Positions 1,009-19,363 of a stretch of 64,000 nucleotides of DNA are shown piece by piece. A program made the translations under genes and the position numbers. The notes under the pieces are model-generated. The model did not search any database and was not told where the DNA came from. It worked only from the letters and a program-made list of their open reading frames with translations. Position 1 is the stretch's first letter; each line of letters opens with the position of its first letter. The stretch is from Hydnum rufescens UP504. Lineage: Eukaryota; Basidiomycota; Agaricomycetes; Cantharellales; Hydnaceae. The stretch is from contig MU128964.1 in NCBI GenBank assembly GCA_014904985.1, forward strand, positions 72,582-136,581. The letters run 5' to 3'.

Positions 1009-1259
1009 GCATGCATCAGCCTGGTCAGCCAATTATCCGTATCTAACTAGATGCTTCAAGGGTTGTATTTATATACTCTAACTAGATATCAGAGCCCGGG
1101 GCCCCAGGGGCCCCTGCAATACAATCAAGGGGCCCCCAAAGCAGCCCAGGGGCCCCTGCCATATTATGCATCATATATTAATATATTATTATTATTGCTA
1201 TTATTATTATTATTATATTATATACATCCATAGGCTCGCCAGTGGGGCTCACCCATGCC

Positions 1260-2724
1260 CAAGAAGAACAGCCCGGGGCTGCTCTTCTTGCGCAATTGTA
1301 GCCAAAGGAAAAAACCCTTACCTTCATGCCAGGGGGTTTGGCTTGGTTCAGCGGGTTTGGGGTTGCGGGGTTTGGCTTGCCGGATCTTCGTTCGCTGGGT
1401 TTGGGTTCGCGGGGTGTTCGTCTGGCAGGTTTGGCTTGGCAGGTGAGGGGTCAGGGGTTCGCGCGGATTCGAGTCTAAGATCTAGAAAAAAAAGCAGTAC
1501 ATTAGTTAGACACGCATTAATAAAAGAAACTTACCTTGTAGTACCACACACCCGCGGCAGTGGGGTGTGTGGTACTTTACATTCCCCGTGTATTGCCGGC
1601 CGGGTTTCGATATGTGGGGTCGCGGGGGTTCTTGCGTTGGTATTTGCTCGCGTGAAAGGTGAAGACCTAATAGAAAAAAAAGTCGGTCAGTTAAGAAATA
1701 AGGGCAGCACAAAAAGAGCAGCTTTCGCTGCTCTTTTTGGCAGGCCGCATCTACTGGGGGGGGGGGACTCACCTTACATAGGACCACACACCCGCCGCAG
1801 CGGGTGTGTGGTTCCTGGGGCTCATCTGGCACGTTGTCGTCTGAGCCCTCGTTGTTTCGCGCGCTTTCGTCATATTGTAGATCAGATCTTGAGCTAGAAT
1901 AATAAAAGACGGGTTAGTCAAACAAGTCCAAAGCAGCGCAAAAAGAGCAGCCTTTGCTGCTCTTTTTGCGCGGCCGTATCTACTGGGGGGGACTCACCTC
2001 ATATAGAGAACCACACCCGCCGTAGCGGGTGCGGTTCGTGCGGCCACTCCTGGGCCCATTGTTGTCCGTCATCGTCGTGTCGTCGTCTGGCTTGGTCGTG
2101 TTTTCGTGTTTCTCTTTGTTGTGTTGCATGGGAAGGGGGGGGGTGGGTCGTTTGGCGTGTCCCCGGGTTCTCGTTCGGCGGTTTCACCTTCATCACATAG
2201 AATAGAAGATGATGTTAGTTAAAAAACATTTACAACCAGCACAAAAAGAGCAGCTTTCGCTGCTCTTTTTGCGTGGCTGTATATATAAGGGGGGGGACTC
2301 ACCCTATATAGAGAATCACACCCACCGTAGCGGGTGTGGTTCGTGCGGCCACTCACTGGGGGCGTTGTCTTCTGTTGTGGTCGTGTCGTTGTCTGGCGCA
2401 GCCGCGTCGTCATCTGTCGTCGTCACATCGTCATCTGGCGCGGTCGCGTCATCGTCTGGCGCAGTCGCGTTACTCGCGTTTCCTTGTCGTGTTGTTGGCT
2501 GGCGTGTTGCCGTTTGGGCCCTGGGCAGTCGGGCCCTCGTCGTTTCGCGTGTTTTCGTCTGGTGCTTAGGACCAGGTCACAATCTAAAGTAATAAAAGGT
2601 GTTAGTAAAAACAATTCAAAGCAGGGCAAAAAGAGCAGCTTTCGCTGCTCTTTTTGCCCCATTGTAGCTACTATGAAAAAAACTCACCTAATGACCACAC
2701 ACCCGCAGCGGCGGGTGTGTGGTC
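1260..2724 (-). repeat. Left array: six hairpin-intron modules reading outward on the minus strand
   Basis: Read on the minus strand from the centre outward, introns with GT...AG signals lie at 2584-2687, about 2188-2302, 1894-1997, 1667-1772 and 1482-1534, plus a terminal donor at 1321. Their donors read GTGAGT or GTAAG and most branch points read CTAAC or similar. Exonic hairpins precede the donors at 2693-2724, 2312-2342, 2008-2037, 1783-1812 and 1541-1575. Intronic hairpins lie at 2624-2659, 2239-2274, 1936-1971, 1710-1739 and 1260-1290. The intron at 1482-1534 is only 53 nt and lacks the intronic hairpin. The acceptor of the intron near 2188 is the weakest assignment. Exon sequence between modules is low in complexity and has no conserved reading frame that I can see. 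Confidence 0.75.
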
Positions 2725-2744
2725 ATGTGTTTCCTTTAATGGGC

Positions 2745-3495
2745 GGTTGCCTTGTTGGGTGGTGGTTGTTGTGGTAGTCGCGAGAAAGAACGCAACTCAA
2801 CGCTGGCAATTGCCGGCATCCCAAAAGCGCCCACGTGCCTGGCACCATGAGTACCGTACGAACTAGCAGCAAGTAAATAGATGTAAAATAAATAATAAAT
2901 AATAACTAGTTGCTCCAAAAAAATGAAGAACACCATGACAATCAGTCAGAGTTCAAAAGAGGCATGATATGATACGTTGCAAAGTGGATTGGGCGATTTC
3001 TATGGTTCAGAACCGGCCCAAATCTGAATATATTGGTGGAATACATGAAGCCTATATGGGCGATTAATTATCTTGGACGTTCTCTCCATTTTCAATTTTT
3101 CCCACCTTCAATTCCCTAAATATAGGGAATTGAAGGTGGGAAAAATTGAAAAATGGAGAGAACGTCCAAGATAATTAATCGCCCATATAGGCTTCATGTA
3201 TTCCACCAATATATTTAGATTTGGGCTGGTTCTGAACCATAGAAATTCGCCCAATCCACTTTGCAATGTATTATATCATGCCTCTTTTGAACTCTGACTG
3301 ATTGTCATGGTGTTCTTCATTTTTTTGGAGCAACTAGTTATTATTTATTATTTATTTTACATCTATTTACTTGCTGCTAGTTCGTACGGTACTCATGGTG
3401 CCAGGCACTTGGGTGCTTTTGGGATGCCGGCAATTGCCAGTGTTGAGTTCCTCGCAACTATGCAACCGCCACCACCCAATAAGTAAGGCAGCCAC
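2745..3495. repeat. Central palindrome of about 0.75 kb, near-perfect core
   Basis: The two arms are reverse complements centred at 3120-3121, where AATTCCCT and AGGGAATT are separated by six bases. Identity is high across about 2770-3470 with scattered single differences. The symmetry continues less exactly into the flanking exonic hairpins (2693-2724 and 3514-3545) and the module arrays, so the whole 4.46-kb element is roughly mirror-symmetric. No gene is visible. If transcribed, the core would form a long fold-back RNA. As the arrays read away from it in both directions, it could also house divergent promoters. Both uses are inference. Confidence 0.9.
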
Positions 3496-3513
3496 CCAGA
3501 TAAGGAGGTACGC

Positions 3514-4869
3514 GACCACACACCCGCCGCTGCGGGTGTGTGGTCCTTAGGTGAGTTTTTTTTTTTTTTTCATTAGTATATATGATGGCGCAAAAAGAGC
3601 AGCGAAAGCTGCTCTTTTTGCGCTGCTTTGAATCACTTTTACTAATATATCTTTTATTATTTTAGGTTATGGCCTGCTCCAAGGTAGCAGACAGAAGCCG
3701 GCCAAACGACAAGGACCCAAATGGCTATACGCCAACCGAAAATACGCCAAATGAAACCACCAGCCGAAAACACGCCAACCGAAAACGCGATAAACGATGA
3801 GAACACGAGGATCGAGTAGCCATGTGAACCGCACCCCCCTCAAAGCGGGTGTGCAGCTCCATATAAAGTAAGTAACGCAATATACCCCAACAACGCAAAA
3901 AGAGCAGCAAATGCTGCTCTTTTTGCGTTGGTTCTTGTTTTAATTTTTAACTAATGTGTTTCTATTATCTTAGGTGATTGTCTGAACCAGAACCGGCAAA
4001 ATGAAGATGCGCCCAACAAGAATGAATAGAACAGACGCCTGCCAAACAACAACATGAAACGACACCGAAAACCCTGGTGGACCCCAACCAAGAACGCGCC
4101 CAATGAACCACACACCTGCCATAGCGGGTGTGTGGTTCTATATAAGGTAAGTATTATTTGTACCCCCAACGGCGCAAAAAGAGCAGCGAGTGCTGCTCTT
4201 TTTGCGCTGGTTTTAATGTCTAACTAATACTTGATTTTTCTAGGTTATCGCCTGAACCTCTACCAACGAAACCAAGAGCCGCCGAATGAGAACAAACGGC
4301 CAAACGAACCCCCCTCCGCAAAGCAACAGCCCGCCGAGCACGGCCCACAAAAGACCCCGCACCGAATGAGACCCCCACAAATAACGAAAACCAAACCCAA
4401 TGAAGACACAAAACGACCTGGCGCCAAGAACCCACATGAGCCACACCCGCTTTGGTGGGTGTGGTGATTTTTAAGGTAAGTATTTCAACTTAGAAGTACA
4501 ACCGCGCAAAAGGAGCAGCACAGGCTGCTCCTTTTGCATGCCTTTTCTTTTTTTTGCTAATGTAGGGTTCATTATTCAAGGTCCCCATAGCCCACACCAA
4601 TCCCCCTCCCCCCAGACTCGAATCCCGTGAACGAAGACCCGCGAACGACCTCGTGCCAAACAAGACCCCCGCGCATGACGAAAACCAATGAAGCCATGAA
4701 ACGATGCAACGCCGAGAACCCACACAAGCCACACCTGCTTCAGTGGGTGTGGTAATTTTTTAAGGTAAGTATTTCATGCTAGAAGTACAATCGCGCAAAA
4801 GGAGCAGCACAGGCTGCTCCTTTTGCGTGGCTTTTCTTTTCTTCACTAACATACTGTTTATTACTCTAG
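3514..4869 (+). repeat. Right array: five hairpin-intron modules reading outward on the plus strand
   Basis: Introns lie at 3551-3665, 3868-3973, 4147-4243, 4476-4565 and 4765-4869 (90-115 nt). Donors are GTGAGT or GTAAGT, branch points CTAAT/CTAAC, acceptors TAG. Exonic hairpins sit 5-12 nt before the donors at 3514-3545 (14-bp perfect stem), 3826-3858 (imperfect), 4105-4138, 4441-4464 and 4729-4752. Intronic hairpins lie at 3588-3623 (16-bp perfect stem with a GAAA loop), 3892-3929, 4172-4207, 4506-4537 and 4794-4827. The last two carry AAAAGG/CCTTTT where the others have AAAAAG/CTTTTT, which is a compensatory change. Exons of about 170-230 bp have no shared reading frame that I recognise. 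Confidence 0.8.
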
Positions 4870-5479
4870 GTGTTCTTCTGACCCCATGGCCTGCACCTAC
4901 CCCCACCCAATCCCCCTCCCCCCGGTCCCAAAACCTGCATGAACACGAACCACCATCTGCAAATCCGCCGACCAAAAACCTGCGACCCCACCGAATAAAA
5001 ACCCGCGACCCCACCAAATATAAACTTACAACCCCCATTGAATACCAGAAGAGGGAGGGGGGGGATAAGCTGTATAATAGTATAAAAATAATAAATGAAT
5101 AATTATGTGTTATAATCCGGGGGGGCAGGGGGATCAATCTGTATAATAGTATAATAATAATAATAATAATAATAATAATGTGTAATAATGAGAACAAACA
5201 GTAATAAATAAACAATCCCAATTGCCGATAAGCCTGTATAGCCCGCTCACCCATTCAGGGACATTCCCAGGTCTGCTGGAGCCCACCCCCATGATTTTAT
5301 TTGCCAGCTCCCTTGCTGCAGTCTAAGGTGGGAGGCAGGGCCCCTGGGGGCCCCTGCCTGAACCACGGAAATCAGGTTAGCCAGCCCCAGGGGCCCCAGC
5401 ATCAAAACCTCTAGTTAGACTATATAAATGCAAGGCTCATAATATCTAACTAGACCTACATTTGTGGCTGACTGAGTTG
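4870..5479. repeat. Right subterminal and terminal region of the non-autonomous element
   Basis: After the last module the sequence holds two near-copies of a GGGGGG-ATAA-CTGTATAATAGTATAA motif (about 5050-5080 and 5115-5150), a run of TAA repeats at about 5150-5178, and GGGGCCCC-type blocks at 5335-5360 and 5385-5400. The terminal inverted repeat follows (TCTAGTTAGA ... TATCTAACTAGA). The mirror position at the left end (1080-1240) has the same order of GC-rich blocks and TAA/TTA repeats. No gene is visible. Confidence 0.7.
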
Positions 5480-5962
5480 GCATGCATACAATCCTTGCTC
5501 ATCAACAAATTTGGTGAACCAGCCCTTTTATTTTGATACCTCACATCAATTCTCAATGTAAGTTGAAGTGTTCAGTGTTCCACTGTAATATCTTCTCAAT
5601 AGCTAACCTCCTTTCTTTTGCAGAGTGAATCACTGCGACCAGTCTGTGGTGTCCACCCCCAAATTCCTCAACTGTGCATCTTTGGTTGAACGCTGCATTG
5701 TCGCATTGTCGCAGTGTCTGTTTCTCCAACATCCTCAAGTCTGCTTATTCCCTTGGTCAAGTGAATCACTGTGGTTTCTCTAAGTGCTCACTTGCCATCT
5801 CCCTCAAATACTATGCCCATACAATCCCTACTCATTGACAAATTTGGTGAACCAGCCCTTTTATTTTGATACCTCGCATCAATTCTTAATGTAAGTTGAA
5901 GTGTTCAGTGTTCTGCTGTAATATCTTCTCAATAGCTAACCCTCCCTTGTAGTGTTTCCAGA
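5480..5962 (+). repeat. Tandemly duplicated 5' leader of the KDZ gene, with candidate leader introns
   Basis: Positions 5488-5613 and 5817-5945 are near-identical direct repeats, each starting at an ACAATCC(T/C)(T/A)... leader sequence and containing a donor-like ATGTAAGTTG, a CTAAC branch point and a CTTTTGCAG or CCTTGTAG acceptor. The second copy leads 10 nt later to the KDZ start codon at 5963. Between them, 5633-5815 repeats the sequence at about 815-1008. The direct repeats flank one leader unit, so this looks like a tandem duplication of an untranslated exon plus intron. Confidence 0.7.
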
Positions 5963-8900
5963 ATGATTCGCAGTGCCATAAGGACTGTAAAAAAGAAGGA
6001 GTCCCGTGCATCTGCCCATGGTCGCATGAAAGCTGGGACCATTCGTGCCTTTGAGGCTCATCAATCAAGGATGAAGGCCTCCAATTCTCGAAAACAAGCC
6101 CATCCAGACACAAACCCAACCATTTCGAGTGATGTACTTCTGAATGCTGTCCTAGGCATTGATGGCATCAACACAGCTCTTCAGGATTCCATCAGCCAAG
6201 AACAGCTCAGTGTTCAGTATGACGTTACCCCTCTCTTGACCAATACTGCCAGTGTCATTGATGATAAATGCTCACGCCATGCCTGTCACAAACATGCCCA
6301 GGCGCATCAGTGGAACAATACCGTACTCCCATCTCTTATTCGTCCTTACATGAAGTTCCGGAGGGAGCAGCACCATTCTTCTTCATTGGACAAGTCTGGC
6401 AGGTTCATTTTCAAGTGCAGCAGCAGGCACCATATGTTGGAGGTGACCTGCATTCATATGGAACAGATTGAGGATGTCGTGTTGGATGTCTGTGAATGCA
6501 GATCTGCCCCTGTCCAGCTAGTCCAACATGGTTTCTTCCCATGCGCCCCAGTTCAGCCTACATTGGCTGTAAGTCTTGATATGCTGGAATTTGTCTCAGA
6601 GCTTTTCCATCACATTGCTCCCAATGAAAGAGGCTGGGCGGCAACTCTTACCAAGTACTTGAAGACCCATGGTTATTGTTTCGCTATGGGGATTCATTTC
6701 GCCACCGTTTTGCAAATGCCCTGGCCCACTATCAGCAGCTTGTCGAGCTCATTGATGCAGAGGTTGAGAAGTTGGTAGACCATTTGCAAGGGCAATCTCA
6801 TGTCTCCCCCCACTCCCCAATATCAATGTCTGCATCCCAGCTTGATGTGAAGACCCCAGTTAATGAGCACTATTATTCAAATGCACAGGGTACAGTCGAC
6901 ACTGTCACCATTCATGATTGTCCTAGCATTTACCTACAATCTCGGTGTCCACTGTGCTTTGGCAGTAACAATGCTGAGATTGGAGGCCTAATGGTTGATT
7001 CCATTGTCTGCATTGATGCGAACTTCCAGCTGAAAAGACAGTGAGACTTGGACAGATGTGTGGGGTATCAAGGAGAGACTGGAACTCAGGACCCACACAT
7101 TACATCACCAAGGACGATTGAGCTGTCACAGGAGGCCTTAGAGGCATGGGAGCAAAAAGTCTGAGGTATCCGACCTGGAAGAGGAGAACCAAGAGCTGGA
7201 CAGAAGCGCAAAGCCCATGAGGTGGTGGAAAGAGAAGATCTGCAAGCAGAGGAAGGAGATAAAGTCGAAAGGAATCTAAACATGCCGAATTCTACATACT
7301 GTGCCTGTGGTGAATCTTTCATTGCTGCCAATGGAGATCGAATAAAGGCATCGACTCAATACTTCAGTGACACTGGCGTCCTTGCCATGCTCTGCCGACA
7401 TGATATTCCCATATTTCTGGCCAACATGTGGACTGCTGGGGAGAAACAATTTTATGTGTTTGCCCTTCTTGATGCCCTTATCAAGCATCTGCCCCATCGT
7501 TGGAGAATTGGTGCCTTATATGATATTGGCTGCCAAATAGACCAATCGCTCAAGAAATGGGACTTTCTGCCAGAGTGGTCGGGGCGTTTGGAGTGGGGTG
7601 TATCGATTTTCCATGCATATGGGCACCAGTGGACCTGTCAACTATGGTACCACCCTCGAAAGAATGAGATCTGGGGTCTTTCAGATGGAGAAGGGTGTGA
7701 GTGGTTTTGGAGTGAGTTACGGTGACTTATCCCTGGGCTTCAGGTGACAGGCTATCACCATCAACTATTCCTTCTGGACTTACAAGTGGAACACATTGAT
7801 GAGGGGAAACGAGAGGGTTTTGGAAAGTGGCTGAGGGATCACACTGATCATGCCCAATGTCATTTGGATGAAGCCCAGGAGAAACTTGGTCTTCAGTCTA
7901 TTGAGTATCTCCTCCAACAATTCAAGGAGCAGCAGCTTTATCACAGTCAGCCAATATCCCAGCAGTCCCAGACCCAGGGTGCCCATGCCATTGATCGTAT
8001 CCTTTCACTACAGTCCACATTAGATTCCCAGTGGGAGAACTTGCAAGACTTAATAAAGGAGGGCAATGATATGGTTGGAGAGGACAGTGCAAGTGAAGCT
8101 GTGCTTATGGAATGGCAGGAAAAGGTTAAATCAACCAAGGCCTCAGTAGTGTGCCTTGAAAACAACATACAAAAGAAGGTCAAGGAGCTGAAACTCCAGG
8201 ATCAGGTTGCTGCCCAGAAGTTGTCAAAGCTGAAGAAGGATAAATGGATTACTCTTCAGCTCAACCTTCGTGTTCTTAGGGAACAACTCCTCCAAAAGTT
8301 AAGGGAGCAAAAATTTGAGCTTGCAACTCTGGATCACACCCATTCCACTCACATACTGGACCAGAAGATGAAGGCACATGTAGAAAAGGCTGTGAAGCAC
8401 TGCTCCTCTGGGATTGAAGGCACTATGAAGAAGTACAATGTGACATTGGTGGAAATGGTTGAATATAGAAGGAGATCAAAAAGTATCTCAAGGGATGCTT
8501 ATATTCCACCAATGCTTTCGAAGGAAGGGTTGTACAGACTGGATGTTGATCAGGATATATGGGAAGATACAAGGGGTGATGTTGCTGACTTCCCTGATGG
8601 TGTCCTTCCTCCATGGTTGGCAGATGCTTCAATCAAGCAAGGGATATGTACCGTGCAGGAGATCATCAACTGTAAAGAGGAGTTGGAATGGTGCAAGGTG
8701 GAACACAGTAATCTTTGGACATGGTTCTCTAAAGAGTATACTGCAGTGGAGAGACTGGTCAACTTCACACAAAATGATGATGTCTCATTCTTTGCCCTTG
8801 TTCGACTGCATCAACTGTATGACTGGTTGGTGACTTGGAGAAAAGATCTTTCTCTCATTAATTCTATGTCAACTACCCCATGCTGGGATGATATCCACCC

Positions 8901-9099
8901 TCCAATACCTCTAGAACATCACCATCTCAGTCAAGTTTCAGGCATATCATCAAGGGGGCATGAGGATGATGGGTTGAGTAGTGTGGTATCATCTGATGAT
9001 GATGATGATGATGATGGAGAACTAGAGGAGGATTGTGACGTAGAGGACCTTGGTTTTATTGCACTCGTAGATAGCACCCTCATAGATAGTGAAGATTAA
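5963..9099 (+). pseudogene. KDZ-family transposase, inactivated by three TGA stops and one frameshift
   Basis: The reading frame spans about 1045 codons. The N-terminal part (about residues 120-235) has the cysteine cluster associated with KDZ transposases (CxC1-like) and the family sequence LEFVSELF...PNERGWA. The core has the expected acidic positions in VCIDANFQLKR, LLYDIGCQID-type (ALYDIGCQIDQS), FHAYGHQW, and LSDGEGCEWFWSELR. The C-terminal half is coiled-coil-like and ends in an acidic stretch. The first 238 or so codons are in one frame; a single-base slip near 6670-6678 moves to the frame used to 9099. That frame has TGA at 7042-7044, 7162-7164 and 7723-7725, each explicable as CGA to TGA. 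I chose the start at 5963 because it follows a clean acceptor. The gene is the likely source of activity for related elements, but this copy cannot make full-length protein. Confidence 0.93.
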
Positions 9100-9362
9100 T
9101 GTACTAGAATTATTATTCATTAATGCATATAGCCCTTGTCTTGAGCTAAATATTGTCAAGTCCTTGAAGTTGAGGCCATTGACAATGGTTGATGTCAAAT
9201 TTGATGTCAAAACCATCAGTACGAGGTCAAAATTCAGTTTTTGATCATCATTTGACATCAACCCCAATTTAAGCCTCTCAGGCCCAGACAAAACATCAAA
9301 ATGGTACTCCTTTTGAGCTAAGGCTATATGGCTGACCAGCCTGTGCCTGGAAAGGCAAGCAC
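9100..9362 (+). other. KDZ 3' flank before the right-end array
   Basis: No gene is visible. The stretch contains short direct repeats (GATGTCAAATTTGATGTCAAAA and GACATCAA near 9190-9265) and runs directly into the first exonic hairpin. It is the expected position of the transposase 3' untranslated region. Confidence 0.5.
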
Positions 9363-10826
9363 ATGACCACACACCCACCACCATGGGTGTGTGGTCATAA
9401 GGTGAGTTTTTCTGCTAGTAGGTATGATGGCACAAAAAGAGCAGCGAAAGCTGCTCTTTTTGGGCTGCTTTGAAACTTTTTACTAACTCAACTTTAATTA
9501 TTCTAGATTGAGGCTTCGTTCAACATACAACAATAGCCTGCAAAATAATGAGAACCCAAATGGCAGCCCAACATGCGACCCACAGCAAGGGGCCAATGTG
9601 TGAAATATGGCAGCACACCAAATGAGGATGTGATGTGGCAATGACGCAAGATACGGCACCATGCCAAAAGAGGACATGACCCACAGCAATGTGGCAACGA
9701 TGCAAAATACAGCACCATGTCAAATGGGGACACGACCCATGGCAATGTGCCAAATGAGGACACGACCATGCCAAATGAGGGCCCCAGGAATCACACACCT
9801 GCCACGGCGGGTGTGTGGTCCCATATAAGGTGAGTCCCCACCCCCAGTAGCTACAACCATGCAAAAAGAGCAGCGAAAGCTGCTCTTTTTGCATGGTGTT
9901 TAATTTTTAACTAATTTAACAATATTATTTTATAGGTATTAACCATTCTCGCAAACCAATACTGATGCAAAACCCCCTGTACCCCCCCCTTATCGACACC
10001 TGAATGACAGGGCACAGGGAGAACCCGTACATACAAGCCAGAGTCCATGCTCCCAGTACCCTACACCTGCCACAGCGGGTGTAGGGTGCTCCAAGGTAAG
10101 TTTTTATTTTTATTTTTTATTTCTGATTCTTGTGGCACAAAAAGAGCAGCATGAGCTGCTCTTTTTGCATTGCTTTGAATATTTATACTAATGATTCGTT
10201 TATTATTCTAGGTTGACTTGTCCAAGACATGACAAAAACCCATGAAACAATGAGGGACTGAGTGGTAATGCAACACATGCCAACATGACATGCAACACAC
10301 GACACGCAACATGCAACATGCAACATGCAACATGCACCAACATGACACGCACCAATGCGAGACATGCAAACATGCCAAATGAGGACCCCAGGTACCACAC
10401 ACCCACTGTAGCAGGTGTGTGGTACGATTTAAGGTGAGTCCCTGCACCCCAGTAGCTACACCCATGCAAAAAGAGCAGCAAAAGCTGCTCTTTTTGCACT
10501 GCTTTGGATATTTGTACTAATATATCTTTTATTACTCTAGATTGTGGCCACAATGAAAACCCGCAAAACAAACAAGGGCCCAAATGGCAACACACCAAAG
10601 GGCAATGCAATGGACAGCAACATGCCAAATGGTGACACAACAAATGGCAATTCACCAGACAAGAACCGAATGCACCCAATGAGTGGCCCTATATACAGTG
10701 AGTCCCCCTGGTATTTATTTTCCTTAGCTACATTGCACAAGAAGAGCAGCCTCTGGCTGCTCTTCTTGGGTGCATGGGTGAGCCTAGTGTATGTAATAAT
10801 AATAAATAAATAATCCTAATGGCTAG
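9363..10826 (+). repeat. KDZ right-end array: five hairpin-intron modules downstream of the transposase stop
   Basis: Introns with donor, branch point and acceptor lie at 9402-9506, 9830-9935, 10096-10211, 10434-10540 and, less surely, 10698-10826. Exonic hairpins lie at 9363-9398, 9790-9819, 10058-10087 and 10392-10425; the last module has none. Intronic hairpins lie at 9433-9462, 9857-9896 (18-bp stem, GAAA loop), 10138-10167, 10465-10498 and 10738-10768. Stem sequences change in compensating pairs: the exonic stem at 10058-10087 has CCCTACACC with GGTGTAGGG, where others have CCACACACC with GGTGTGTGG. The array is on the same strand as the transposase and just after its stop, so it would form a multi-intron 3' untranslated region. 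Confidence 0.8.
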
Positions 10827-10839
10827 GGGCCCCAGGGTC

Positions 10840-10966
10840 CCTGGGCTGCTTGACCAGCCCCCTTGACTGAATTGCAGGGGCCCCCTGGGTCTGATATCTA
10901 GTTAGAGCATATAAATGCAACCCTTGAAGTATCTAGTTAGATACCAATAATTGGCTGACCAGGCTG
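10840..10966 (+). mobile_element. Right terminus of the KDZ element
   Basis: Read in reverse complement, this end starts CAGCCTGGTCAGCCAATTAT and continues through a TCTAACTAGATACTTCAAGGG-like block and GC-rich GGGGCCCC repeats. It matches the left end at 1017 almost base for base. The next eight bases (ATCCTAAT, 10967-10974) do not match GCATGCAT at 1009-1016, so 1017 and 10966 are not the two ends of one insertion. The left end of the KDZ element is not identified and probably lies outside the window. Confidence 0.75.
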
Positions 10967-12249
10967 ATCCTAATCCCATTTTTTTTTAGCTTCCAACCAT
11001 GTCAAACCTGAAGCAATCAAGTAATGGCTCTCAACCTGATGCTCAGAAGTGTGTAAGGCTTGCCATTGATCCTCAATTAATTACCCCAGTACCTTCACTG
11101 TCACCTTCGAATTCAACAATTGGAATTGAAATGGAGATGACTCAGAATGTGGCAGAGAACTCTGGTCTGTGTCCTCCGTCCCCCCTCTTCTGTGGACATC
11201 CTTACTAGAATCACCATTCAGGTAACTCACAAGAAATATTGTTAGCAGTCCAGCCTCAGACACCACTGCCAGCCTGTGGCCAGGGCTCCCAACTTGGCAT
11301 TCAGGCCTCACCTTCTAGCTGTCATCTATCAAAGATCCCACAAAAGGGAACTGTGAAAACTTTGGACATTGACCACTTCTTTCTGCAATACAAATCACAG
11401 CATGGAGAAGCCCGAGGGGAAGCAGTATGTAAATCTTGCAGGTATGCATTATTTTACCTCAGATCCAGGAGGAAATATGATAGTAAACAATGGACAGGAC
11501 TCTCTATAAGGAGTCAAATGCAAAGAAACCTGATGATGGACATACCTGGGTATATGGGAATTCGAGTATGACGACACTCTGGAAGCATTTAGAAGCCTAT
11601 CATTCAGAAGAATATCACGAAGCATGTAGAATGCACAATTGGGAAATTGCAATTGAATCAATTTGGAAGACTCACAAACAAGAAAAGGCTCATATGAATT
11701 CCCAAATCACAAAAGAGGAGTTCACCAAGGACAGATTTGTTGGTCAGCTCATTAGTTGGATCACTGCAGATGATCAGGTGTGTATTTGGAACTTCCCTAA
11801 TGAGGCATGAGTTCAAATCATTCCTCTAGTCTCTAAATGTGATTGAGTGTCCCGAGTTCTGCACCCTTTTACTTTATATGAATGAGGATCTGGCTGACAG
11901 TGACATACCAAGACGTACAGCAGTCCAAAGTGTGATATTTAAGAAATGGCTTGAAGAATTTAGTAGGCTGAAAAAAGATCTCACAGTAAGTCATATTTGT
12001 GAGTTCTCAAGTGTGCTCATTACTAGACTTGCTTGATACATTAGGGTTCCCTTGGGAAAATTTCAACTTTGCCCATACTTGGCCATCACTGCACACTGGA
12101 TACAACACCACAAAGATCGGACACTAAAACTCTGTGCCGACCTGATTGCTTTCCACTATATCCCTGGAAGTCACAATGGAAAATCTCTTTGTGACATTAC
12201 AAAGTGTATGCTTGAATGTTGTAAGCAGGATGGTTATTAAACCAATCCA

Positions 12250-13602
12250 ACCACTGTGCACAATGTTGAGCCGGGGATGAAAGAGGGGATCACAGATCTA
12301 ATCCAGATGTTCAGGTCCGAGTGGGGGAAGGTCTTTTGAACAGGGAAATTGCAGTGAGCCAACAAAGCCCAAGCAATTGAGTGAGAAAATGTGTGTTTCA
12401 GTCAAATTACCACACCCTAAGAATCTCTTCTTGATACCTTAGTCAAAGTGTAGTTAGAATTTTCTTTTTTTAGTGAGAAATCACCCAGGGACCAGCAGCT
12501 GTTCAAGAAGCTTCAAACTGGAGGGAGGGGGAGAACTAATGAATTTGTGTGCTAGCTGCACCTAATATACAATCCAGACTTCGACTCAATAGAAAGTGAA
12601 AAAGTCGGACTTAAGGGACACACAGACAAAAAGAAATAAAGTTAAAATCTTCAAAACTGATGGAGATATTCCAATTTCAAGATAAAAGGGGAGATTGACA
12701 CATTACATGCTATTCCTCCTTCAAACCTGGACAAGTTCCCTTAAGGAAAAGTGGAATAGGTCGCCCCAAGGGTCTTCTCCATTGGACATAAGAGGGCCGG
12801 AAGTAATTCGCTATTTTGAATGGTGGAGCAAAGGGGGAGTCATGGGAGGGAGTTGTCTTGTGAAAAATGGAGTTCGCATCCGCTCGTTTTTCCCTTGGTA
12901 CCTTTCGATGCGCATTTTTAACAGATTTCAGGGCATGGCATTCGCGAACAAATCCGATAAGAATTGGCTTCGAAAATCAAGAAATACTCCTTTAGAGTAT
13001 GAATCATGGCAAGATATTGTTACAGGGACCGCATTTTTGATCCGTTCGTTTCGTGTTTGGTACCGTTCGATAGGTATAATTTGTATCTTTCTGGGAGCAG
13101 TTGTTTCGAGCCGATCTGATCAAAAATGACGGAGAAATTCGAAAAATACTCCTTCAGAGTAGTGCAGCCCCTATCTGGATCATGTGACGAATCCGCAAGT
13201 CCAGAATCAGAACTAGGCCCGGTCTGCATCATTACATAATCACAATTCATTGCCCTTAAGGCAATAGGATGGCTTGGAAGAGCAGGCAAGTCATCCAGTC
13301 TTGAAGAAAAATGGCAAGTTGAATTGCCTTGTCCAAAGAAATTGGACTTGAAGTAGGGCATAAACTGCCCCTTTTTGATGAGGACTGTTGAAGTCTGACA
13401 GATAGTCAATAAATTGACTGGTGGACATAGTAAAGGAATGAGGCAATATTATGGGTTGGAAAGGGGTAGGAATCCAATTGATTTCTTGAATAAACGAATG
13501 GCGATAAAATTAAATGAGTGTGGTGACATATAATTGATTCGTTCGTAGGGAAAATGGCCTCAGATGAGGATTTCTATGGTGTAGGGATTTATCCCTCCAA
13601 CA
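12250..13602. repeat. Degenerate dispersed repeat, copy 1 (probable retroelement remnant)
   Basis: This stretch aligns by eye, with many small differences, to about 56350-57540. Shared landmarks include CAATGTTGA near the start, a GTCTGGGTG/GTCCGAGTG block, TACCACAC-CTAAG, AATATACAA(C/T)CCAG, AAGCTTCAAAACTGA(T/C)(G/A)GAGATATT, and the closing TAGGGATTT(A/T)(T/T)CCCTCCAACA. Both copies begin near TGTTG and end in CAACA, as an LTR read in either direction might, but I found no matching target duplication. No intact coding region is visible. Confidence 0.6.
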
Positions 13603-13650
13603 ACGTGTCAATATCCTACATAAGGTGTGTGCCGAACACAACTTCCTCCC

Positions 13651-14496
13651 TGTCAGGATCGAATTGACATTTGCTTCCGCCTAAGGACTTACCCGTCGGA
13701 GTATCATTCTTCATCGACTCTATCATATGGCACCTACTTCCTCAAATGCTCTTGTCTCCTCTCTCCCTCCATTCACTATGGGGGTTATTGTCATCCTTGC
13801 CATTATTGGCATTTCTCTTATTATTATTGCCCTTGCTCTATCGGGCCTCGGCCAGCGGGCTATGGGCTGGGTAGTCAACCAGTGGCAGCATTGGCACCCT
13901 TGTCAGCACCTGTCATTCCCTCATTCCCCACGTGAGTCCATGGAGTTGCCAATCCAGACTCCCCCTCCTCCTCCTCTACCCCCAGTCCCTGAATCCACAT
14001 CACCTGTCCCAATCCGTACTCCATCCACATCATTACGGTCCTTTGACACTTTGGACACCTTTGGAGTACCCAGGCGTACACTGCCTTGGAAGTACATACA
14101 CTAAGGGGGATACATATGGAAGTTGGGGCATAGCCATGTGGAGGTGTGCACAGGATTCGTAACACGGCTGCATCAGCTTAGTGAGGCTTAGTGATGGTGG
14201 CTGTGGAGGCTGACTGATGGGCTGTGGAGCCGGCATTCTAGGAAGATCCGGAAGGTTATGGAAGACGGCGGAAGGTTCTGGAAGGCTGGAGGCTGTGTGC
14301 AGGAAATAGTATTTATAGCCCTTCACAGTTGGGGATCACCAGTTTCGATCTCTCAGGATTCCCACTGCGATAGGTGCAAGACTTGTGTGTCCCTTGTTGT
14401 GTGGTGTATACTCAGGATTCCCACTGCGATAGCATGTGGTTAATTAATCTCTTTCCTCTTTCTGTTTGTGGCTTCGACGGCAGTGTCACCCTGACA
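13651..14496. mobile_element. Solo LTR, 846 bp
   Basis: The segment begins TGTCA and ends TGACA, an inverted pentamer with the standard TG...CA, and is flanked by a perfect 5-bp duplication CTCCC at 13646-13650 and 14497-14501. There is no internal retrotransposon sequence, so this is the product of LTR-LTR recombination. It contains a 125-codon open frame at 13727-14104 with a strongly hydrophobic stretch (MGVIVILAIIGISLIIIALAL), probably fortuitous, and two copies of CTCAGGATTCCCACTGCGATAG (about 14353 and 14410). It is nested beside the dispersed repeat inside the hAT gene. Confidence 0.85.
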
Positions 14497-16253
14497 CTCC
14501 CCATGAGAGATGTCCCTTTTCCAGGGTCTTGAGACTGTTTAACTCATCTAAAATAACTAACTAGATTGGGTGGTGGAGACTCAACAATGCCAGTAACAAC
14601 AACATGTTTATGGCAGAGTTCAAAAAAATCTTAAAAGTGGAGGGTATACAATTCTCAGCCAACAACAACAGGATTCAGTCAGTAAAATTTATTTGCTTCA
14701 CCTGTCTATTGTGCTAACAAGCAAAATATCCTCCTCTCAGATGTTTTGCCCATATAATCAATATCTCTGTTCAGCATGTGCTCACACACCTGAAGAAAGC
14801 TCCTCAGGGCAATATTTTGGGCCGTCTGTGCCGACTCATCCATGCCATGAGAACATTGAATGACCATCGCATAGCTTTCCAAGAGACCATCAAAAAAGGC
14901 AATGAGGAGGGTGAATTTATTCCCCATGTGCCTGAACTCGAATTGCTTTGAGACGTTGATACAAGATGGGATTTGCAATATGGGATGTTGCATAGAGCGA
15001 TACCAGCATGACCAGTAAGTTCAAGGGGAGGAGTTCATGATATGCTATCTCACTGATTTTCATCTTAGGCATTGGCAGCAATGTTTCAACAATGCAAATA
15101 TCACAATCTCCAAACCAAGAACCTAACAAATGCTGAGTGGAAAATGGTGGAGAAAATATGTGAGATCTTAGCAGTATGCCTTCAACTGTCTTATTTTCAG
15201 TGACTGATTGTGAAACTCATAGTACCCACACTCAGTCCACCAGTTGATGTCCGGCAAGGCCACACCAATCCTCAGTGGTGCATTACCAGCTTTCCAGTCC
15301 CTTCAGAATCAGTGGCAGGACCATGCAATAGCAAACAAGGACATTTTGGAGTATGTATTTGAGGGTATGGAGTGGCTGAACAAATACCATGAGAAGGCTG
15401 GCAAGACTCGCGCATATGTGGTCACAATGGGTGCACTGTCTTTCATTCATATTTTCTTTCACTCATATTTTGCTTCATCTTATATTAATGAGATTCATGC
15501 AGCTCTCAATCCAAATATCAAGTTATTGTTCATTATGAAGAGCTGGGACCCAATAGAACAGGAGACAGCAGTAGAATGGATCAAAGAGGAGGCAAGTCAT
15601 CCTGTGTCTCTCAGGTATGACTCTGACTCGAAATATTTATTTATTTAGCTCAGCAAGTATAGGGAAAAAACTCTGACTACAACTCTGCCCACAAGCTCAA
15701 CAACCACACTCTCTGAAAATGCACACATTATGCTTGGCCTCATTGACAGTGATGATGAAGATGACGAAAGCACAAGTATCAATGATGAATATCTGGCATA
15801 TATTTCGGCAAAGCATGCCCCCACTACAAAGCCCATACTTACATTCTGGCAGGTCCATTGTGTTTGGTTTCAATTTTTGAATGTCGGACAACGAATATTG
15901 ATATTGAGATCATATCCCTATAGGAGCATGAGCATATATATCCAACTTGGTTCCTTATGGCAATGGATTACTTACCGATTCAAGCCTCGTCCATCCCATG
16001 TGAGCGAGTATTCTCATCAAGCTCCGAGACCATGACAAAAAGGCACAACCACATCAAACCCGAGCTCATGGAAGCCTGACAAATGCTCAAGTTTATGCTC
16101 AAGAAGCAGTGGCTGAGCTTTATGGATAGCTGGGAGACTCTGATTGCTGACATGCGGGATGACAAGGACAATGAAACAAGTGTGCTTCAGGATATATTAG
16201 GGGCTCAAGGTTCGGAGTTGGACCAGATTCTGGAAAGACTGGGCAAAGAATAG

Positions 16254-16417
16254 GGTTACACCCATATGTGTACATACAAAGACTCAAGTCCACTTAGAGT
16301 CTAAGTCGACTCCTAAATTGGAGTTGGACTTCGGAGATAAGTCTAGTCTCTCGGAAATCTCACGGAGTCGCCCGAAGTTGACTCTAAGTCAAGCGAAGCT
16401 GAGTCGCGGCATCACTA
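16254..16417. mobile_element. Right subterminal region and end of the hAT element
   Basis: The sequence has repeated motifs of the AAGTC/GACTT and GTCGCC-GAAGTTGACTC kind and ends GAGTCGCGGCATCACTAG, close to the GAGTCACGGCAACACTG end of the MITE at 55384-55589. That gives a terminal repeat close to CAGTGNTGCCG, typical of hAT ends. The left end is not in the window. Confidence 0.6.
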
Positions 16418-19258: not shown

Positions 19259-19363
19259 TAGACTCGTGACCAGTCTTCCTCAGCTCGCTGAGGGACTGGT
19301 ATAATGGGTATTGCCGGCAGGTTCTGTCTTGCGGCAAGCTGAGGAAGACTGGTCACGAGTCTA
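19259..19363. repeat. 27-bp perfect inverted repeat around a 51-bp spacer
   Basis: TAGACTCGTGACC... at 19259-19285 is repeated in exact reverse complement at 19337-19363. The spacer also contains partially paired sequence (GCCGGCAG / TTGCGGCAAG). It could be a miniature element, a terminator-like structure or an RNA hairpin; no target duplication is obvious. Confidence 0.7.

What the first reader, a model, noticed from the sequence alone, without database searches (positions are those of the whole stretch)
1260..10826. Arrays of hairpin-intron modules, all facing outward, in KDZ-type element ends
Sixteen modules occur in three arrays (1260-2724 minus, 3514-4869 plus, 9363-10826 plus). A typical module has a 10-15-bp exonic hairpin ending 5-12 nt before a consensus donor, an intron of about 90-115 nt with a second 13-18-bp hairpin, a CTAAC/CTAAT branch point and a TAG acceptor. 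All arrays read from the interior towards the element terminus. KDZ elements and subterminal repeats are known; I know of no repeat unit built as a complete spliceosomal intron with paired exon and intron hairpins. Possible roles: splicing-controlled regulation, a small-RNA source, transposase binding sites that happen to mimic introns, or splicing that hides insertions.
Basis: partly seen in the sequence, partly recalled or inferred. Interest (0 to 1): 0.92.

Follow-up and report, generated by a model that had tools for sequence, protein, structure and literature searches.

The report
Transposons built from intron-hairpin arrays
A fungal genome holds a large group of non-coding jumping DNA elements whose two arms are chains of ready-made introns, all pointing outwards; the splicing signals look preserved by selection, which suggests that these elements make spliced RNAs without coding for a protein.

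Summary
The window has 16 outward modules (exon hairpin, 5' splice site, intron hairpin, branch site, acceptor); 12 are complete. Window 1017-5479 is one mobile element with an 8-bp target duplication. Eight relatives fetched from the same 63-Mb fungal genome also have matching 8-bp duplications. All nine are non-coding: a central palindrome, two diverging arms of modules, two different ends. One exact form of the intron hairpin occurs 2,112 times in the genome. GGTGAGT lies 20-45 nt before the half-hairpin 782 times, its reverse complement never. In 57 module clusters oriented without using splice signals, donor plus branch/acceptor occur in 25, against 0.3 in shuffles and 0 on the other strand. 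Core splice positions change less than intron spacer. Correction: the KDZ transposase element ends at 9343 and shows no array there; 9344-10966 looks like half of a separate element that it split. Best reading: non-autonomous, probably KDZ-mobilised foldback elements that make two divergent, multiply spliced non-coding RNAs. Sequence shows mobility, polarity and splice-signal conservation. Transcription, splicing and benefit are inferred. Literature searches found no precedent.

The parts
1017..5479 (.). Complete non-coding element 'A' (4,463 bp), ends CAGCCTGG... and ...GAGTTG
   Evidence: flanked by GCATGCAT at 1009-1016 and 5480-5487
1009..1016 (+). 8-bp target duplication, left (GCATGCAT)
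5480..5487 (+). 8-bp target duplication, right (GCATGCAT)
2794..3449 (.). Central palindrome; proposed two-way promoter (inferred)
2584..2687 (-). Intron of module L1 (104 nt)
2194..2351 (-). Module L2, donor at 2302, acceptor lost
1894..1997 (-). Intron of module L3 (104 nt)
1667..1772 (-). Intron of module L4 (106 nt)
1482..1534 (-). 53-nt intron without the intron hairpin, preceded by an exon hairpin
1255..1324 (-). Terminal hairpin module L5, no credible branch site or acceptor
3551..3665 (+). Intron of module R1 (115 nt)
3868..3973 (+). Intron of module R2 (106 nt)
4147..4243 (+). Intron of module R3 (97 nt)
4427..4583 (+). Module R4, donor at 4476, acceptor doubtful
4765..4869 (+). Intron of module R5 (105 nt)
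9344..10966 (+). One arm of a K-family element with end 1 at 10966, apparently cut off by insertion of the KDZ element
9402..9506 (+). Intron, K arm module 1 (105 nt)
9830..9935 (+). Intron, K arm module 2 (106 nt)
10096..10211 (+). Intron, K arm module 3 (116 nt)
10434..10540 (+). Intron, K arm module 4 (107 nt)
10698..10770 (+). Terminal donor and hairpin, no credible acceptor
5963..9099 (+). ORF pieces of a broken KDZ transposase gene (CxC1 at 5963-6775, KDZ domain at 7222-7722); its element ends at 9343 and is not part of the array elements

Best explanation
These are non-coding, non-autonomous DNA transposons with KDZ-like ends and 8-bp target duplications, built as two inverted arms around a palindrome. 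Each arm is a transcription unit: RNA starts in or near the central palindrome, runs outwards, and the host spliceosome removes about four or five short introns. The intron hairpin is looped out, so that an intron of about 105 nt presents its 5' splice site and branch site at the spacing of an ordinary 50-60-nt fungal intron; one natural module without the hairpin is such a 53-nt intron. The T-poor exons end in a hairpin shortly before the donor. Splicing most likely helps the element in cis, by making its long non-coding RNA pass as host RNA, so that the copy stays transcribed, open at its ends and poorly silenced, while a KDZ transposase moves it in trans. Shown by sequence: mobility, architecture, outward polarity, splice-signal conservation, hairpin conservation. 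Inferred: transcription, splicing, the loop-out role, the benefit, and KDZ transposase as the mover.
For: Matching 8-bp duplications in 9 of 9 elements that have end 1 and end 2 facing outward. Outward against inward signals in 103 hairpins: donor 77 v 0, branch plus acceptor 75 v 9, both 64 v 0. 57 clusters oriented by the exon hairpin alone: GTRAGT 34, branch plus acceptor 43, both 25; shuffle means 1.6, 9.8, 0.3 and maxima 6, 19, 3; other strand 1, 2, 0. K copies: 144 of 165 keep ten core splice positions, against a mean of 70% (maximum 81% in 500 draws) for ten random non-CpG spacer positions. Non-CpG change rates: spacer 0.057, donor 0.028, branch 0.027, acceptor 0.012, intron hairpin 0.014. 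Genome-wide: 782 and 364 donor-hairpin pairs v 0; 1,197 hairpin-CTAAC-TAG. Exons T 10-17%, introns T 32-37%. Stems: 10 of 29 pairs with changes on both sides, 0 of 500 shuffles reach the covariation score. 53-nt intron without hairpin keeps all signals. Palindrome halves alike in every complete copy.
Against: No RNA evidence. Some modules have lost a signal: 4 of 16 in the window, and in K elements the outer modules of the end-2 arm (R5-R7). The stems may act in DNA: inner pairs are almost purely Watson-Crick and the strand test was inconclusive; CpG decay in the intron hairpin hits both strands alike (116 C>T v 99 G>A). Exon conservation in non-CpG sites near the exon hairpin (0.026) and beyond the acceptor (0.017) is also below spacer, so low change is not confined to splice signals. 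In the human case cited for intron protection, splicing itself was not needed. The donor-to-branch spacing of host introns in this genome was not measured.
Confidence: 0.55

Rival explanations
1. The palindromes are binding sites of the transposase or another DNA-binding protein in long subterminal arrays. An intron-bearing unit was amplified early and the splice signals are passengers.
For: Both hairpins are near-perfect DNA palindromes with conserved sequence; inner pairs are 93-100% Watson-Crick. Outermost modules keep hairpins without a complete intron. Arrays lie near the ends.
Against: Splice signals change less than spacer in recent copies and are kept between diverged clusters. One module lost the intron hairpin and kept the splice signals. 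Binding sites do not predict donor, branch and acceptor in order on one strand only.
Confidence: 0.2
2. The arrays feed an RNA-silencing or regulatory pathway: slow splicing or lariat-derived hairpins give small RNAs that act on KDZ elements or on the host.
For: In Cryptococcus, inefficiently spliced transposon RNAs are turned into siRNA templates by SCANR (passages of PMC5851062). Stable hairpins (z-scores -7.8 to -10.1 for 3 modules).
Against: The intron stem has 18 pairs, short for Dicer (recalled). Canonical donors, branch sites and T-tracts suggest good rather than poor introns (inference). No small-RNA data.
Confidence: 0.1
3. A neutral relic: an intron-rich fragment caught in a transposon and amplified; conservation only reflects recent copying and conversion between arms.
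For: K copies are 91-97% alike per module and decay at CpG. The palindrome halves are kept alike by some exchange.
Against: Spacers between A and K modules are only 56% alike while branch and acceptor positions are identical in the 16 aligned modules (these were chosen for having the signals) and the unbiased 57-cluster test agrees. Conversion would not spare spacers.
Confidence: 0.08
4. The spliced exons code for a repetitive protein.
For: T-poor exons have few stop codons by composition; single spliced frames of up to 147 codons exist.
Against: The longest frame differs in place and sequence between copies. The exon after L3 has 214, 222, 228, 243, 243, 264 and 292 nt in seven copies, not in steps of three.
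Confidence: 0.04

Closest known systems
KDZ (Kyakuja-Dileera-Zisupton) DNA transposons
   Same: End 1 matches the end of the window's KDZ-coding element at 14 of 16 bases; 8-bp duplications as given for Zisupton and CA..TG ends as given for Kyakuja (PMC12730594, passages and section 19).
   Different: The array elements code for no transposase, have two unlike ends and consist of intron modules; the text of PMC12730594 has no match for 'hairpin' or 'subterminal'.
Introners / introner-like elements
   Same: Mobile DNA that carries splice signals, often with hairpins (the latter recalled).
   Different: An introner is one intron placed in a gene; fungal ones lack target duplications and inverted repeats (PMC9860276, passages). 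Here one element carries about ten introns with their own exons, and duplications flank the whole element.
Foldback-type elements such as FB and Galileo (recalled)
   Same: Long inverted arms filled with repeats around a centre.
   Different: No intron structure is known to me in their repeats.
HUSH surveillance of intronless mobile elements (human)
   Same: Introns shield long transcripts from a system aimed at mobile elements (PMC8770142, passages); the model for the proposed benefit.
   Different: Human system; protection there did not need splicing, and spliced stuffers did not protect. No fungal counterpart was tested here.

Membership tests
KDZ superfamily (as non-autonomous members) | Codes for a KDZ transposase (PF18758) | tested here: not met
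   tblastn with the window's three ORF pieces against 29 stretches hits only the KDZ element in the window and one fragment in C142; none of the nine complete array elements, so at most a passenger of KDZ
KDZ superfamily (as non-autonomous members) | 8-bp target duplication (Zisupton) | tested here: met
   9 of 9 elements with end 1 and end 2; one pair of two ends of type 1 (C16:254300) has unlike flanks
KDZ superfamily (as non-autonomous members) | Ends like those of a KDZ-coding element | tested here: met
   ATGGCTGACCAGCCTG (KDZ element) v TTGGCTGACCAGGCTG (end 1), 14 of 16; end 2 is more different
KDZ superfamily (as non-autonomous members) | Moved by a KDZ transposase | not testable with these tools
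   needs an excision assay
Spliceosomal intron | Donor, branch site and acceptor in order on one strand | tested here: met
   12 of 16 modules in the window; 25 of 57 clusters under strict rules
Spliceosomal intron | Removed from RNA | not testable with these tools
   no RNA data; no spliced DNA copies found in the 29 stretches
Introner | One element equals one intron, placed in genes | tested here: not met
   target duplications and ends lie at the borders of whole multi-intron elements; single modules inside genes were not looked for
Foldback-type element | Two inverted arms around a centre | tested here: met
   palindrome and diverging arrays in 9 of 9 elements; both palindrome halves in 36 of 39 loci listed

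The most novel reading that the evidence does not exclude
A class of transposon whose body is devoted to being spliced: two divergent non-coding transcripts assembled from self-similar intron modules with their own exon and intron hairpins, so that intron content itself, not a protein, is what selection keeps, for instance as a licence against genome surveillance.
Probability: 0.4. Interest if true: 0.92.

Novelty: new variant of a known kind. Interest (0 to 1): 0.78.

Why it matters
Transposons are usually thought to gain from coding or from their end sequences. An element that spends its length on introns and keeps them by selection would show that being spliced is in itself an advantage for selfish DNA. 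It offers a natural system, with over two thousand exact hairpin copies in one genome, to test how hairpins help short fungal introns and whether introns protect transposons from silencing. It is also a possible stage between a DNA transposon and a mass supplier of introns.

Tried and rejected
Wobble-pair strand test: 25 G.U against 5 A.C cells in the 16 chosen modules looked like proof of RNA-level stems. Over 57 clusters the intron stem has 84 against 40 (34 modules lean to G.U, 11 to A.C) and the exon stem 26 against 32, but the excess sits in badly paired outer positions; within the 13 well-paired positions it is 19 against 9 (p = 0.09) and near what base composition gives. Not used as evidence.

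Alignment A1 holds only modules that had all three signals by my rule (16 of the 22 hairpin positions of two elements; left out were 2 terminal modules and 4 that lack at least one signal), so its splice-site identities are biased upwards. Searches are the tests that do not choose by splice signals.

Spliced DNA copies: none in the 29 stretches; the 12 hits for one junction were its own acceptor site. Rfam: no match in the window. Same hairpin in viral contigs: 5 stretches; against the module model two of them match over the hairpin only and three near-identical ones reach 32 bits, while 13 window modules reach 119-156 bits; I take them for terminator-like chance matches (recalled). Donor plus half-hairpin elsewhere: 27 prokaryotic and 2 viral stretches; in these 29 loci the model finds one lone hairpin, in L068.

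Host name: not established. A search with the window's PL8 lyase fragment gave 125 proteins, 120 listed, without organism names. Pfam hits point to a fungus; a mushroom-forming basidiomycete is my inference.

The mirror control for the acceptor pattern did not complete; for only the tool's own backward control (0) exists.
Full report
WHAT IS THERE. The window lies in a 63.2-Mb genome of 539 contigs with fungal gene domains and a KDZ transposase. A typical one, on the outward strand, is an exon hairpin (ACCACACACCCGC....GCGGGTGTGTGGT), a few nt ending in AAG, donor GTRAGT, a spacer, the intron hairpin (GCGCAAAAAGAGCAGC....GCTGCTCTTTTTGCGC), CTAAY and, about 20 nt on, YAG. There are 16: eleven between 1255 and 4869, five between 9352 and 10770. 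Twelve of 16 have all three splice signals. One, at 1534-1482 minus, is a 53-nt intron that lacks the intron hairpin but keeps exon hairpin, donor, branch site and acceptor.

THE ELEMENTS. 1017-5479 is a complete mobile element, 'A', with ends CAGCCTGGTCAGCC... and ...GGCTGACTGAGTTG and the duplication GCATGCAT on both sides. I fetched 30 loci of about 3 kb, 20 stretches of 9-10 kb and 4 kb left of the window; merged with the window's first 12 kb these are 29 stretches, 237 kb. They contain eight more complete elements (the 'K' family, 3.6-5.3 kb) with identical 8-bp duplications on both sides: 9 of 9 counting A. One pair of two type-1 ends (C16:254300) has unlike flanks, and other ends had no partner in the fetched DNA. 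All nine have the plan: end 1, outward array, central palindrome, outward array, end 2. They look non-coding: the longest spliced or unspliced frames differ between copies. K copies are 91-97% alike per module, and CpG sites change about 5 to 16 times as often as other sites of the same class, as expected of methylated, decaying copies (inference).

A CORRECTION. The KDZ ORF pieces (5963-9099) belong to another element, which ends at 9343 with ATGGCTGACCAGCCTG; the same end, followed by other DNA, is seen in L046. The third array (9344-10966) has the module order of one arm of a K element. So the KDZ element seems to have been inserted into a K element, and A in turn lies in the KDZ element's repeated upstream region (repeats 803-1008 and 5607-5812, 90% alike). 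Only the right junction was seen. The KDZ end and end 1 of A/K agree at 14 of 16 bases, so a KDZ transposase is a plausible mover; at least 154 KDZ matches lie in the genome (lower bound).

IS IT MORE THAN CHANCE. The exact hairpin CAAAAAGAGCAGCNNNNGCTGCTCTTTTTG occurs 2,112 times, its backward control 0. GGTGAGT and GGTAAGT lie 20-45 nt before the half-hairpin 782 and 364 times; the reverse complement of GGTGAGT in that place, 0 times. CTAAC and TAG follow the other half-hairpin 1,197 times (my mirror control did not complete). The GGTGAGT pattern is found in 27 stretches of the prokaryotic collection and 2 of the viral one, without a module. In the nine elements 103 hairpins were examined: outward donor 77, branch plus acceptor 75, both 64; inward 0, 9, 0.

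ARE THE SPLICE SIGNALS UNDER SELECTION. One search does not use splice signals to choose or orient modules: 315 hairpins, 235 orientable by the exon hairpin (80 dropped), 57 clusters at 80% identity. One representative each: GTRAGT 34, GTRNGT 53, branch plus acceptor 43, GTRAGT with branch and acceptor 25; shuffled means 1.6, 6.4, 9.8 and 0.3; other strand 1, 7, 2 and 0. Among K copies, 228 module copies were found; 24 A-class copies and 39 that were below 80% identity or did not span the intron were left out; of the remaining 165, 162 keep GT and 144 keep ten core positions exactly, against a mean of 70% (maximum 81% in 500 draws) for ten random non-CpG spacer positions. Between A and K modules, spacer identity is 0.56, donor 0.95, branch and acceptor 1.00, with the caveat that these 16 modules had been chosen for having the signals. 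Exons are T-poor (10-17%), introns T-rich (32-37%). At eight main positions intron length varies by 0-3 nt among copies; exon length varies by 0-78 nt, though five of eight exons vary by 6 nt or less. Exon sites near the modules also change less than intron spacer (0.017-0.026 against 0.057), so constraint is not limited to splice signals.

THE HAIRPINS. RNAalifold on 16 modules gives stems of 11 and 18 pairs, 10 of 29 with changes on both sides; 96.5% of cells pair, and 0 of 500 shuffles reach the covariation score. Folding z-scores of the three modules tried are -7.8, -8.0 and -10.1. Whether the stems act in RNA or in DNA is open.

THE CENTRE. The two halves of the palindrome are 94.7-97.1% alike within a copy, while A and K halves are 70.5% alike, so the halves are kept alike by some exchange. 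With one half of A as query, 36 of the 39 loci in the list (40 of 438 candidates scored) hold both halves side by side in inverted order. It is the natural place for a two-way promoter (inference). AATAAA follows the last hairpin in 8 of 9 end-1 arms and 9 of 9 end-2 arms, within A/T-rich repeats.

MECHANISM. My best account is a divergent pair of non-coding, multiply spliced transcripts. Looped out, the intron hairpin brings an intron of about 105 nt close to the 50-60 nt usual in basidiomycetes (recalled; two Cryptococcus introns of 52 and 49 nt are named in PMC5851062, passages); the hairpin-less 53-nt intron shows the same signals at that length. Why a transposon would keep this is not shown. 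Introns protect long RNAs from a silencing system in human cells, though splicing itself was not needed there (PMC8770142, passages); in Cryptococcus inefficient splicing exposes transposon RNAs to RNAi (PMC5851062, passages). Both make efficient introns a plausible shield.

LITERATURE. Searches on KDZ, introners, subterminal repeats and intron gain listed no title or abstract start that reports intron arrays in transposons; the library lacks most subscription papers. PMC12730594 (passages and section 19) gives KDZ duplications and ends. PMC9860276 (passages) describes introners. No paper was read whole.

Noticed in passing
L051 (C56:68582-72581), just left of the window: A second copy of element A, inverted, its central palindrome 99% like A's; the outer bases of its end 1 are changed.
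   Followed up: partly
2794-3449 and K-family centres: Central palindrome halves stay 95-97% alike within each copy while families differ by about 30%, a sign of exchange between arms.
   Followed up: partly
genome G000: At least 154 KDZ transposase domain matches, many with stops inside (150 of 584 candidates scored).
   Followed up: no
1050-1086, 5410-5454, 10897-10932: Both kinds of element end carry an outward-reading TATAAATGCAA-like box inside TCTAGTTAGA repeats, about 70 bp from the terminus; possible outward promoters at the ends.
   Followed up: no
10698 and the matching place in K copies: The last module at end 1 keeps a good donor (GTGAGTC) without a credible acceptor; it could splice into flanking host DNA.
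   Followed up: no
L040 about 6900-7700 (end-2 arm of a K element): Splice signals fade in the outermost modules (R5-R7), followed by exon-type hairpins without an intron hairpin.
   Followed up: no
window about 19260-19362: Inverted repeat of about 26 bp (AGACTCGTGACCAGTCTTCCTCAGCT and its complement), possibly a small MITE; seen by eye.
   Followed up: no
window about 11000-16260: Broken frames that look like a hAT-type transposase (recalled from the sequence; no search made).
   Followed up: no
L053, L054, L055 (viral contigs): Three near-identical hairpins like the intron hairpin, 32 bits to the module model; probably terminators.
   Followed up: no
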